The position numbers were made by a program, and so were the translations under genes. DNA of 23,084 nucleotides, from assembly GCA_023150835.1 (NCBI GenBank), contig JAKLKB010000066.1, forward strand, positions 1-23,084, written 5' to 3'. Each line of letters opens with the position of its first letter. Positions within the stretch are counted from its first letter, which is position 1. Positions 694 through 11,287 of the stretch are shown one piece after another. Source of the stretch: Myxococcota bacterium (GTDB lineage: Bacteria > Myxococcota_C > UBA6777). Below the pieces are notes generated by a model. It saw only the letters and a list, made by a program, of their open reading frames with translations, was not told where the DNA came from and did not search any database.

Positions 694-826
694 TTTTGTG
701 GGGTTTGAACCCCAAACCCCGCCATAGAGCGCGGCTCTATGGACCCCGTATCGGCGGGACGAATCGATGTTTTTCAAACCAACAGCGGTGCCGCTTGTAA
801 GCCCGCGAACACGGGAGTTTTTGGAG
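694..826 (+). repeat. Dispersed repeat family R, copy 1
   Basis: One of four related intergenic elements (also 4113-4232, 8423-8553, 11157-11287). Shared blocks in order are a G/C-rich hairpin (GTGGGG...CCCC), CCGCCATAGAGCGCGGCTCT (perfect stem CCATAGAG/CTCTATGG at 722-742), GGACCCCGTAT, TTTTTCAAA with CCAAC, and CGCTTG...GCGAACACGG. The copies diverge moderately, so this is a spread family rather than recent duplication. It contains no open reading frame of note. Confidence 0.75.
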
Positions 827-880
827 GAAGTTGCCGGCGTGGTGGCTTGTAAGCCCGCGAATACGGAAGTTTGGAGGAGG
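793..880 (+). repeat. Tandem duplication of the repeat R tail
   Basis: The block GCTTGTAAGCCCGCGAA plus an ACGG, AGTTT and GGAGGA tail occurs at 793 and again at 845, a 52-bp period. The 3' end of repeat R copy 1 has therefore been duplicated in tandem next to the tRNA terminator. Confidence 0.7.
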
Positions 881-884
881 AAAC

Positions 885-919
885 AAAAAAACCCCATAAG
901 GAGAACCTTATGAGGTTTT
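885..919 (-). terminator. Intrinsic terminator of the tRNA operon
   Basis: Read on the minus strand, AAAACCTCATAAGG pairs with CCTTATGGGGTTTT around a 4-base loop with one mismatch. The stem runs into TTTTTTTG. It lies just beyond the 3' end of tRNA-Asp in the direction of transcription. Confidence 0.8.
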
Positions 920-925
920 GGGGAG

Positions 926-999
926 CGGGGTGGACGGGACTCGAACCCGCGGCCTCCGGCGTGACAGGCCGGCGTTATAACCGACTTAACTACCACCCC
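926..999 (-). tRNA. tRNA-Asp (GTC)
   Basis: The minus-strand transcript begins GGGGTGG and ends CCACCCCG, forming the 7-bp acceptor stem and discriminator G73. The D-arm (TAGTTAAGTCGGTTA) is present, and the anticodon loop CTGTCAC gives anticodon GTC. The T-arm contains GGTTCGAACCC. The 3' CCA is not encoded, so it must be added by CCA-adding enzyme. It lies 33 bp downstream of tRNA-Val and shares its promoter and terminator. Confidence 0.95.
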
Positions 1000-1032
1000 A
1001 TATTCGGGGATTTGCGTATGAGGGCTGAAGGT

Positions 1033-1106
1033 TAGGCGGAACAGGACTCGAACCTGCAACCCTCGGCTTGTAAGGCCGATGCTCTAACCAGTTGAGCTAT
1101 CCGCCC
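1033..1106 (-). tRNA. tRNA-Val (TAC)
   Basis: The minus-strand transcript begins GGGCGGATAGCTCAACTGG and ends TCCGCCTA. A 5-bp anticodon stem TCGGC/GCCGA encloses loop CTTACAA, giving anticodon TAC (Val). The T-loop GGTTCGAGTCC is intact. The first acceptor pair is G-U. CCA is not encoded. It is the first gene of a two-tRNA operon with tRNA-Asp. Confidence 0.95.
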
Positions 1107-8686: not shown

Positions 8687-9745
8687 TTACCAGCTTTCGA
8701 TGCGCTCTGCGACGACTTGGTTTCGCCCCGAGCGTTTGGCGTGATAAAGCCGTTCATCGGCTTCTTGCAAGAGTTCTTCGGGAGAATGAAAGGCTTGGGT
8801 GTAGAGGGTGACAGCTCCGATACTCAGGGTGATTTGGAGCACAGCCGTTTCGATCGGGATGCGGAGTTCTTCTACTTTCATGCGGATGCGTTCGGCAAGG
8901 ATGGCTGCTTGGGTGGGTAAGATCCCTCGTGCAACGACCGCAAATTCTTCGCCGCCATAGCGTGCGACGATATCTTCTTTGCGCAAGGCCATCTGGATGG
9001 TTTGCGCGACCATCCGGAGGGCTTGATCGCCTGCGGGGTGTCCGTGTGTGTCGTTGAGATGCTTGAAGTGATCGATATCCATCAACAGCAAAGACAGCGG
9101 AGTTTTGTGGCGCTGAGCAAAGCTAAATTCGGTTTGCAGGCGTTCGTCGAAGAACTTGCGGTTGTAGACTTGGGTCAAGCCGTCGAGTACGGCGCTTTCG
9201 TAAAGTCGCCGTTGGAAGAGTTCTTCGAGTTCGTCGTGGAGAGAAAACTTGAGGATCGTGCTGCGGCCGAGTTGGATGCGATCGTTGTCTTGGAGCAGGT
9301 AGCTTTTGACGCGGCGACCATTGACGAAGGTTCCGTTGGTGCTTCCGAGGTCTTCGAGCAAAAAAGTGTCTGTGTCGCGCTGTTCGATCCGCGCATGGAT
9401 CCGCGAGATATCGTTGTCGCGCAAAGATATCTCGCATTCGCTACTGCGGCCAAGATGAACACAACGCTGTTCCACACGAAACATCTGGCCCGTCAGATGG
9501 CCCGATATCACCAACAAACAGATGCGATCTTTTTTTTCTTCGAGTTGTTGGCGCAAGTCTTCGACACGAGCGATCACGGTGGCTTCTTCGGCGGGGCTAT
9601 CGTCTTGGTCGGCCAGATGTTGAGCGAGATGCGGGGGGACATGCAACTCGGGTAGAGGCATGGTCATCTTGCCGACGCGGCGTCGTTCTTCCGTCGACGA
9701 GGCGATTTGAGCGCGGTGTTTTTTGGGTTCGCTGGAGTATGTCAT
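8687..9745 (-). CDS. FHA-GGDEF diguanylate cyclase
   Basis: The 352-residue protein has an N-terminal FHA domain (about 75-168) with HLGRSSECEISL and the phosphothreonine-binding GSTNGTFVNGR at 134-144. A GGDEF domain (about 185-350) follows, with LLLMDIDHFKHLND at 219-232 and active-site GGEEF at 264-268. The inhibitory RxxD site is intact as RKED at 255-258, exactly five residues before GGEEF. It should make cyclic di-GMP from two GTP in the cytoplasm, with binding of a phosphothreonine partner through FHA and product feedback through the I-site. No transmembrane segment is visible. The FHA domain suggests control by a Ser/Thr kinase, not seen in this window. ATG 9745 has an AGAAGAAG site; M27 is an alternative start. 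Confidence 0.93.
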   Translation of the reverse strand: MTYSSEPKKHRAQIASSTEERRRVGKMTMPLPELHVPPHLAQHLADQDDSPAEEATVIARVEDLRQQLEEKKDRICLLVISGHLTGQMFRVEQRCVHLGRSSECEISLRDNDISRIHARIEQRDTDTFLLEDLGSTNGTFVNGRRVKSYLLQDNDRIQLGRSTILKFSLHDELEELFQRRLYESAVLDGLTQVYNRKFFDERLQTEFSFAQRHKTPLSLLLMDIDHFKHLNDTHGHPAGDQALRMVAQTIQMALRKEDIVARYGGEEFAVVARGILPTQAAILAERIRMKVEELRIPIETAVLQITLSIGAVTLYTQAFHSPEELLQEADERLYHAKRSGRNQVVAERIESW

Positions 9746-10051
9746 AACTTCTTCTTACACAACCGTATGGAAGGAGACGAATCCTTGGTGGAGATGACAC
9801 GCATCAGACTTGCAAGGTGTAGCGTTTCGTGCTAATGCGCCGCCGTGGCGCACGCCCAAGGGGTTATCCTATGCTTGTGTGCGCTTAAAAGCGAGACCCG
9901 CGCCTATCCCCAACCGCCCACAGCCCCACAGGGCCTTGTTTGTGGAGATCCACGCTCGCATAGAACGAAGCCTCTCGGCATGATAAAGTCTTTGCGCCAG
10001 ACACGCAATGCTTTCTCTCACGCCTCTTTACCTCTACAGGATAAAAACACC
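9746..10051. other. Divergent intergenic region
   Basis: This 306-bp gap separates the divergent GGDEF and threonine dehydrogenase genes and should hold both promoters. A hairpin with 6-bp stem TGCGCC/GGCGCA lies at 9836-9852. No consensus sigma70 pair could be assigned with confidence. The plus-strand frame of the dehydrogenase extends into the gap but without family similarity. Confidence 0.5.
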
Positions 10052-11005
10052 ATGCCAAAGATCCTTGTCACCGGTGCGCTCGGCCAGATCGGTTCTGAAC
10101 TGACCCGCGTTTTGCGCGAAACGTATGGCGATGCTCAAGTGATCGCTTCGGATATCCGCTTGCCTGATCTTGCGGCACATCCGCACAATGGCCCGTTTGA
10201 AACGCTTGATGTCATGGACGAACAACAAGTCCACCAGATCATCGAAAAACACCAACCCCAACAGATCTATCACCTCGCGGCGTTGTTGTCTGCGGTGGCT
10301 GAACGCGATCCGCTGCGCGCTTGGAACCTCAATATCAACGGCTCGCTGCACATCTTTGAAGCGGCGCGCAAACACCAAGTCGAGCGATTGTTTGTACCGA
10401 GTTCGATCGCAGCCTTTGGCCCGACCACGCCGCTAGATCACACGCCCCAAGACACCATCCAACGGCCCAATACGATGTACGGTATCACCAAAGTGACCAC
10501 CGAGTTGCTCGGAGAATACTACTACAAACGCTTTGGCTTGGACTGTCGTGGTTTGCGCTTGCCCGGGGTGATCAGCTACACCACTCCGCCCGGGGGAGGG
10601 ACGACTGATTACGCGGTGGAGATCTTCCACTATGCGGTGCGCAACCAACCTTATACTTGTTATCTTCGCCCCGATACATCGCTGGATATGATGTACATGG
10701 CAGATACTCTTCGCGCTTGTTTGGGGGTGATGGCAGCGGAGAGTCAACGCCTGATCCATCGCAACGCCTTCAACGTGACGGCCATGCAGTTTACTCCCGC
10801 GCAGCTCGTGGCTGCCATCCAAAAGCACATCCCCTCGTTTGTTTGCCATTATGAGATCGATCCGCTGCGGCAATCGATTGCCGATTCATGGCCCAACGGG
10901 ATGGATGACTCTGCGGCCCGCCAAGAATGGGGATGGCAACACGAGTATGATCTTTCCCGCACAGTCGAGATCATGATCAATGCTTTGCGAAAAGCACAAC
11001 ACTAG
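10052..11005 (+). CDS. L-threonine 3-dehydrogenase, SDR/epimerase type
   Basis: The 317-residue product is an extended short-chain dehydrogenase. The NAD-binding motif GALGQIG is at 8-14, the conserved LAALLSAVAE follows at about 75-84, PSSIAAFGPTTP at about 116-127 and the catalytic YGITK (Y143, K147). The segment LRLPGVISYTTPPGGGTTDY followed by AVEIFH is characteristic of the epimerase-like threonine dehydrogenases of mouse and some bacteria rather than of the zinc Tdh. The reaction oxidises L-threonine to 2-amino-3-ketobutyrate with NAD+, usually then split to glycine and acetyl-CoA by Kbl; no kbl is in the window. The start MPKILVTG is where the family begins; the ribosome-binding site (ACAGGA) is weak. 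An upstream in-frame ATG at 9980 is less likely. Confidence 0.92.
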   Translation: MPKILVTGALGQIGSELTRVLRETYGDAQVIASDIRLPDLAAHPHNGPFETLDVMDEQQVHQIIEKHQPQQIYHLAALLSAVAERDPLRAWNLNINGSLHIFEAARKHQVERLFVPSSIAAFGPTTPLDHTPQDTIQRPNTMYGITKVTTELLGEYYYKRFGLDCRGLRLPGVISYTTPPGGGTTDYAVEIFHYAVRNQPYTCYLRPDTSLDMMYMADTLRACLGVMAAESQRLIHRNAFNVTAMQFTPAQLVAAIQKHIPSFVCHYEIDPLRQSIADSWPNGMDDSAARQEWGWQHEYDLSRTVEIMINALRKAQH

Positions 11006-11023
11006 GCTGTGATCGCGTAGGGC

Positions 11024-11142
11024 TTATACGAGATCCGAGAGAAGTATGCACAAACGAGAACACGCGGATGCCCGATTCTTGGGCAGCCACAGGGGGCTGC
11101 CCCTACCTCTTTACGATCACGCAACGGGCGGATTTCGTATGA
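11024..11142 (+). repeat. Hairpin repeat family P, copy 2
   Basis: This 119-bp element has imperfect inverted ends, TTATACGAGATCCG (11024-11037) and CGGATTTCGTATGA (11129-11142), 12 of 14 pairing. It contains the hairpin GGGCAGCC/GGCTGCCC (11081-11088 with 11095-11102). It matches copy 1 (30-95) in inverse orientation and resembles copy 3 (18459-18512). It lies 18 bp after the threonine dehydrogenase stop. Size and inverted ends suggest a MITE-like element. Confidence 0.75.
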
Positions 11143-11156
11143 CGCATTTGGACGGA

Positions 11157-11287
11157 TGTGGTGGGGTTTCACCCCGCGCCCCGCTTCCTTAGCGCGGCTC
11201 TATGGACCCCGTATTGGCGAAGCGATCGCAGGTTTTTCAAGACAACGACTCTCTCGCTTGGGCGTTCGCGAGCATGGCTTTTTTGCC
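11157..11287 (+). repeat. Dispersed repeat family R, copy 4
   Basis: It shares with copy 1 the exact 28-bp core from AGCGCGGCTCTATGGACCCC through GTAT, then TTGGCGAAGCGATCGCAG, GTTTTTCAAGACAACGACT, CTCTCGCTTGGGCGTTCGCG and AGCATGGCTTTTTTG. It follows family P copy 2 by only 14 bp and fills the convergent gap before the aldolase stop. Confidence 0.75.

What the first reader, a model, noticed from the sequence alone, without database searches (positions are those of the whole stretch)
694..11287. Four-copy structured intergenic repeat family (R)
About 120-133 bp elements at 694-826 and 11157-11287 (plus) and 4113-4232 and 8423-8553 (minus) share an ordered set of blocks: a G/C hairpin, CCATAGAG/CTCTATGG stem, GGACCCCGTAT, TTTTTCAAAACAAC, CGCTTGGGCG and CGCGAACACGGCTTTTTTG. 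Both orientations and diverged copies within 11 kb imply an abundant genome-wide family, possibly a non-autonomous mobile element or structured RNA.
Basis: seen in the sequence. Interest (0 to 1): 0.62.

Follow-up and report, generated by a model that had tools for sequence, protein, structure and literature searches.

The report
Mobile RNA-like intergenic repeat family
About 700 copies of a small transposon-like DNA element, carrying a conserved 126-letter stretch that folds like a structured RNA, are scattered through the genome of an uncultured myxobacterium, often placed right behind the ends of genes, so they may act as portable gene endings.

Summary
The four elements belong to a dispersed family of about 97 full copies per Mb, extrapolating to ~730 in the 7.56 Mb genome. 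A congener (Myxococcota MAG KLAP109) has a similar density. Beyond the genus the full element was not found; one other genus of the family has a related hairpin array.

Intact insertions are ~168-bp MITE-like elements: TIR AGGASTKACGCAGTTGG, ~7-bp target duplication, no ORF. Several sites are empty in the congener, including window copies C and D.

Inside is a 126-nt core with specific pair covariation: 10-14 C-G/T-A, 62-96 A-T/G-C, and a pseudoknot-like contact 12-26 C-G/T-A. Other positions are near linkage equilibrium, so the copies recombine. TIRs erode in copies shared by both species while the core stays recognisable. Copies reading with a gene sit closer behind its stop codon than reversed copies.

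Best reading: a MITE family with a structured RNA-like passenger, tolerated or used as a sense-oriented 3' end. The transposon part is well supported; the 3'-end function is inference (terminator scan weak, no transcript data, no transposase found). Nearest in kind: BOX/RUP/SPRITE, ERIC, Correia. New variant of a known kind.

The parts
694..826 (+). Copy A: 126-nt core with P1 GGGGTTTGAACCCC, P2 CCATAGAG..CTCTATGG, P3 GGCGG..CCGC and the CGCGAACACGG + T-run end. No recognisable TIRs. Orthologous copy present in G001.
4105..4234 (-). Copy B: core without recognisable TIRs. A match to this stretch (window 4101-4227) lies next to the orthologous genes on G001 contig C42, so a copy is probably present there; the site itself was not resolved.
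8407..8576 (-). Copy C: complete ~168-170 bp element (core 8421-8554), flanked by a short direct repeat AGCAAAA(GA) at 8400-8408 and AGCATAA(GA) at 8577-8585. G001 has the empty site.
11135..11302 (+). Copy D: complete 168-bp element (core 11156-11289) with degenerate TIRs, inserted beside another repeat (11023-11150). Both are absent from G001.
840..876 (+). Partial copy: duplicate of the 3' end of copy A (GCTTGTAAGCCCGCGAATACGGAAGTTT).
   Evidence: E 0.001-0.002
16992..17032 (+). Relic of a copy's 3' end (TGCCGAGAAATCAGGGTTTTTCGTCAACTGCG). G001 still has the full element at this site (KC474:3807-3932).

Best explanation
A MITE family (non-autonomous DNA transposon, ~168 bp, TIR AGGASTKACGCAGTTGG, ~7-bp target duplication) carries a 126-nt passenger that acts as a folded single strand, most likely RNA. 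The fold is hairpin P1 with a loop-to-spacer contact 12-26, a loosely kept hairpin P2, a long stem P3 (58-62 with 96-100), and a short 3' hairpin followed by a T-run. An unidentified transposase spread it. Copies that read the same way as a gene and lie just behind its stop codon are tolerated or kept because they can serve as its 3' end (3' UTR, terminator or RNA-end protection). Reversed copies sit further from the stop codon. After insertion the TIRs decay, while recombination or gene conversion among the hundreds of copies exchanges alleles and keeps the core family-like. Shown: copy number, TIRs, target duplications, empty sites, covariation, linkage equilibrium and positional bias. Inferred: transposase type, transcription, 3'-end function and gene conversion as the mechanism.
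For: Density ~97 full copies/Mb and ~130/Mb in the congener. TIR PWM and length peak at 167-169 bp; target-duplication match peaks at 7 bp, 0.42 vs 0.31 for swapped ends. Clean empty sites in the congener for window copy C and C138:101800; overall 12 of 28 tested G000 copies and 8 of 22 G001 copies have no partner. A second, younger 114-bp family has the same TIRs and 7-8 bp duplications. Covariation: 62-96 r2 0.91, 10-14 r2 0.75, 12-26 r2 0.67, while r2(10,12)=0.01, r2(12,14)=0.01 and r2(10,26)=0.005. Whole-structure covariation score 0.205 vs 0.138 shuffled (0/500) and 0.06-0.08 slid. Median distance behind the stop is 19 nt for sense vs 69 nt for reversed tandem copies (p 8e-4); convergent gaps 27/36 nearer the gene read in the same direction (p 0.004); within 30 nt 54/97 vs 21/77 (p 2e-4). 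Shared copies keep core scores (101.7 vs 99.6 bits) but rarely both TIRs (1/25 vs 9/20). 51% of ortholog differences swap two common family alleles vs 23% expected for random mutation. Another genus of the family has ~75 copies of a related hairpin array with the same P1-closing-pair switch.
Against: No transposase with these TIRs was found. The terminator scan flagged no copy except a weak hit at D, and a crude terminator score did not differ clearly between strands or contexts. Orthologous cores diverge about as much as their flanks (13.9% vs 16-19%), and 19 of 33 pair changes between orthologs break the pair, so per-locus purifying selection is weak at best. The equal core scores are partly ascertainment, since badly decayed cores escape detection. 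G.U/A.C asymmetry favours the + strand only for 12-26 and P4, not P1 or P3, and slid controls are also asymmetric. P2 is poorly paired (78%). The gene calls are home-made.
Confidence: 0.6

Rival explanations
1. Purely selfish MITE: the fold matters only for the element's own spread (for example as single-stranded DNA or RNA seen by the transposition machinery). The position behind stop codons just reflects where insertions do least harm.
For: Many insertions are unshared between close species. Orthologous cores are not clearly more conserved than flanks. Intergenic repeats commonly collect downstream of genes (discussed for pneumococcal repeats in PMC3049150).
Against: The bias depends on orientation in both tandem and convergent gaps. 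TIR-less copies keep core score and pair integrity equal to TIR-bearing ones.
Confidence: 0.3
2. DNA-hairpin biology without RNA function: palindromic arms stay complementary through hairpin-templated repair and gene conversion, as could be imagined for mobile double-hairpin elements.
For: Pairs 10-14 and 62-96 lie in palindrome arms. Modules are swapped freely. G003 carries strings of interchangeable hairpins.
Against: Pair 12-26 is not within a palindrome, yet r2 is 0.67 while both positions are independent of their neighbours. C-A is nearly absent at this pair (2 of 243) while T-G occurs 19 times. P2, the most obvious palindrome, is the least well paired.
Confidence: 0.2
3. Independent small RNA genes: each copy is its own ~125-nt sRNA transcription unit ending at the T-run.
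For: Defined 5' hairpin and 3' hairpin plus T-run. MITE-derived sRNAs are known in Coxiella (PMC10969869).
Against: No excess of sigma-70-type promoter-like sites in the region. No conserved block upstream of the core other than the TIR. Proximity to the stop codon of sense genes suggests read-through transcription instead.
Confidence: 0.1

Closest known systems
BOX, RUP and SPRITE elements of Streptococcus pneumoniae (PMC3049150)
   Same: Small modular, mosaic intergenic repeats with predicted RNA folds, TIR-based mobilisation in trans proposed, enriched downstream of genes; SPRITE is terminator-like.
   Different: Different sequence and host phylum. Here there are ~730 copies, a covariation-supported loop-to-spacer contact, near linkage equilibrium, and orientation-specific placement behind stop codons.
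ERIC elements of enterobacteria
   Same: Similar size (127-bp consensus), hundreds of intergenic copies (up to 711 reported in Photorhabdus, PMC10969869), effects on mRNA depending on orientation.
   Different: From general knowledge ERIC is essentially one imperfect palindrome; this is a chain of separate hairpins with distinct TIRs. No direct sequence comparison with ERIC was made; copy C has no blastn match in plasmid records.
Correia/NEMIS elements and other bacterial MITEs
   Same: Short, no ORF, TIRs, target duplications, movable in trans.
   Different: Correia carries promoters and 26-bp inverted repeats with internal sequence up to 156 bp. Here a structured core persists after TIR loss.
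Mobile double-hairpin elements (DHE) / repetitive hairpin-forming elements of mitochondria
   Same: GC-rich hairpin modules that move and shuffle (search hits PMC7218506, PMC2800124; titles and abstracts only were seen).
   Different: Organellar; TIRs and 7-bp target duplications are not part of that description as known to me; the non-nested 12-26 coupling is extra.

Membership tests
MITE (non-autonomous DNA transposon) | Terminal inverted repeats | tested here: met
   Both TIRs detected in 52 of 236 full copies, one in 83; consensus AGGASTKACGCAGTTGG
MITE (non-autonomous DNA transposon) | Target-site duplication | tested here: met
   Match peak at 7 bp; examples at C87:136126 and C138:101800
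MITE (non-autonomous DNA transposon) | Insertion polymorphism / empty sites | tested here: met
   12/28 and 8/22 syntenic sites lack the element in the congener; clean empty sites
MITE (non-autonomous DNA transposon) | Autonomous partner with the same TIRs | tested here: inconclusive
   None in 1.8 Mb of TIR pairs or at PF01609 loci; other transposase families not searched and the genome is incomplete
Structured RNA | Covariation of paired positions beyond controls | tested here: met
Structured RNA | Transcription | not testable with these tools
   no RNA-seq for this uncultured organism
Known Rfam families | Match to a covariance model | tested here: not met
   only two tRNAs in the window; no match at E<=5 in 4000-11400
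Intrinsic terminator | Stem of >=5 pairs followed by a U-tract | tested here: not met
   Scan flags only a weak site in copy D; the 3' hairpin has about 3-4 firm pairs plus the T-run
REP/BIME with RAYT | Y1 (REP-associated) transposase and short GTAG-type palindrome | not tested
   Architecture with TIRs and target duplication argues against it
Integron attC sites | R'/R'' core boxes in cassette arrays of one orientation next to IntI | not tested
   Copies are dispersed ~10 kb apart in both orientations (65 +, 72 -) with target duplications, unlike cassette arrays

The most novel reading that the evidence does not exclude
A freely recombining population of ~700 mobile structured RNA elements per genome supplies portable, orientation-specific 3' ends to a large share of the organism's genes. 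It has a conserved loop-to-spacer contact recognised by a host factor, and the module has been rebuilt with different hairpins in another genus of the same family.
Probability: 0.25. Interest if true: 0.8.

Novelty: new variant of a known kind. Interest (0 to 1): 0.52.

Why it matters
If right, a transposon family has been turned into a genome-wide supply of structured gene ends. Comparing filled and empty sites in two close species then makes it possible to ask directly how such repeats change transcript ends. The family is also a natural experiment on RNA pairing: hundreds of diverged, recombining copies in which only physically paired positions stay linked.

Tried and rejected
Rfam at gathering and permissive thresholds: no family. 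Plasmid records by blastn with copy C: none. Autonomous IS by TIR pairs up to 4 kb and PF01609 transposases: none with these TIRs; the 1.3-kb TIR pair on C183 encloses truncated copies, not a transposase. TIR sequence in the literature: no hit; P1 hairpin sequences in the literature: one unrelated hit listed. A universal bacterial P1 motif: a strict pattern was found in only 1 of 381 genomes outside the family; weak look-alikes in small plasmids and phages may be chance or convergence and are not claimed as members. The single Acidobacteria pattern hit (L172) looks like a chance match inside a coding gene, judged by reading the sequence. Terminator-quality difference between sense and reversed copies: not significant. 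114-bp family orientation bias: too few copies. Strand choice from G.U/A.C asymmetry: inconclusive.

Full report
OBSERVATION. The four elements are homologous and in the stated orientations (profile E 1e-34 or better; core coordinates). They are part of a dispersed family: 51 full copies in 416 kb, 115 full and 22 partial in 1.19 Mb of the same genome, i.e. about 97 per Mb and, by extrapolation, ~730 in 7.56 Mb. Whole-genome searches agree in scale (675-781 first-look candidates; all 150 scored CM candidates pass). Strands are balanced (65 +, 72 -). Mean pairwise identity is 72.5%; nearest neighbours are at 85.5%.

DISTRIBUTION. The congener G001 (the named collection shows it as Myxococcota bacterium isolate KLAP109) has ~130 full copies per Mb of sampled sequence. 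Two genomes of genus g2 in the same family have none. G003 (genus g3) gives weak CM matches to another abundant repeat: ~75 copies of GTGGGYTNNCNRCCCACACCCGC, a string of interchangeable hairpins with the same P1-spacer-P2-CCCC order. Its P1 closing position is again C..G or T..A. Outside the family, a strict P1 pattern occurs in 1 of 381 sampled genomes. Rfam has no match.

MOBILE UNIT. Information content falls to background ~25 nt outside the core. The outermost conserved sequence is an inverted repeat, AGGASTKACGCAGTTGG. Elements with both ends are mostly 167-169 bp and are flanked by a duplication whose match frequency peaks at 7 bp (0.42 against 0.31 for swapped ends). Comparing syntenic stretches of G000 and G001 (genes mostly 92-96% identical) gave presence/absence calls: 12 of 28 tested G000 copies and 8 of 22 tested G001 copies have no partner. 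Window copies C and D are unshared and copy A is shared; for copy B a matching element lies next to the orthologous genes on G001 contig C42. Exact empty sites include copy C and C138:101800. Some 'absent' sites keep relics of the 3' end, so losses also occur (C138:100224; window 16992-17032). A second MITE family of 114 bp, with copies far more alike, shares the TIRs. No transposase with these TIRs was found.

STRUCTURE. In 220 unique copies the three strongest mutual-information pairs are 62-96, 10-14 and 12-26. On 243 copies: 62-96 A-T 148 / G-C 82; 10-14 C-G 121 / T-A 103; 12-26 C-G 103 / T-A 94 / T-G 19 / C-A 2. Linkage elsewhere decays to r2 ~0.02 beyond 10 nt and 0.005 beyond 80 nt, apart from a few local blocks, while these pairs stay at 0.67-0.91. 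Position 12 is independent of 10, 13 and 14 (r2 0.004-0.014), so the 12-26 coupling is not ordinary linkage. On a 66-sequence alignment the named structure scores 0.205 for covariation against 0.138 shuffled (0/500) and 0.06-0.08 slid. 12-26 joins the P1 triloop to the spacer after P1, a pseudoknot-like contact. P2 is different: its left and right arms (AAGGGAG, CATAGAG, TTCCTTAG; CTCCCTTG, CTCTATGG) are exchanged freely and 22% of cells are unpaired.

POSITION. With a home-made gene caller (83% coding), 16 of 194 full copies overlap a predicted gene. The distance from a stop codon to the element depends on orientation. In tandem gaps the medians are 19 nt (sense) and 69 nt (reversed), p = 8e-4. 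In convergent gaps 27 of 36 copies lie nearer the gene they read with (p = 0.004). Overall 54/97 against 21/77 lie within 30 nt (p = 2e-4). The same contrast is seen in copies with both TIRs (12 vs 68 nt), so it exists early. A simple reading is that a sense copy can stand in for the natural 3' end while a reversed copy cannot. This is inference: the terminator scan flags no copy except a weak site at D and my terminator score shows no clear difference.

FATE OF COPIES. Copies shared by the two species have lost TIRs (both TIRs in 1/25 against 9/20 unshared; best TIR score p = 0.027), but their core scores are equal (101.7 vs 99.6 bits). TIR-less copies keep P1 and P3 integrity equal to TIR-bearing ones. 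Yet orthologous cores are not letter-conserved: divergence is 13.9% in the core, 18-19% in the TIR flanks and 16-17% further out. Differences between orthologs are often swaps between common family alleles (51% against 23% expected), including compensatory ones (12/26 and 62/96). Pairs are also broken in 19 of 33 changed cases. This fits exchange among copies plus limited selection better than strong per-locus selection. Ascertainment matters: a core decayed beyond detection is counted as absent or missed.

VERDICT. As a kind it belongs with BOX/RUP/SPRITE, ERIC and Correia. New here are the abundance in this lineage, the covariation-supported non-nested contact, the near linkage equilibrium, and the orientation-specific position behind stop codons.

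Noticed in passing
window 36-130, 11023-11150 and around 18481-18515: A different repeat, TATACGAGATCCG...GTAGGGGCAGCCCCCTGTGGCTGCCC...CGGATTTCGTAT. Copy D is inserted directly beside one of these, and the 11023-11150 copy is missing at the orthologous site in G001 together with D.
   Followed up: partly
C70:3608-3721, C87:79380-79493, C24:20646-20759 and others: A second, younger 114-bp MITE family with the same TIRs, a GTAGGGGCGGTTCGCGAACCGCCC hairpin and a CCCGAACATGGGCC + T5 end resembling the core's 3' hairpin.
   Followed up: partly
G003 loci L282-L311: Strings of interchangeable hairpin modules (e.g. ACGATGCTCACGCATCGT, GCGCTCTTCGAGCGC, CTGCCGCGCTTCGCTTGGCA) with many compensatory variants in another genus of the family.
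   Followed up: partly
L255 (gut phage MT836893), L257 (Listeria plasmid), L254 (viral contig), L260 (E. coli plasmid): Non-coding double hairpins resembling P1-spacer-P2 (GGGGCGCTGCCCCAAACCCCGC...), in two of the plasmids near mobilisation genes; weak matches, not shown to be related.
   Followed up: partly
G000:C102:3511-5572 (L190:3511-5572): A Cys-rich protein gene lies between a lone 114-type left TIR and a full 114-bp MITE, possibly a composite or a relic.
   Followed up: no
window 15730-15870 against 14750-14850: A direct repeat of ~90 bp (CTTTGGGTGTAGGCGCTTGCGTTGTGTGGGTGGGGTATGCTTCACTTGTCCGTGGTTGCGGCAC) precedes two neighbouring genes, which suggests a local duplication.
   Followed up: no
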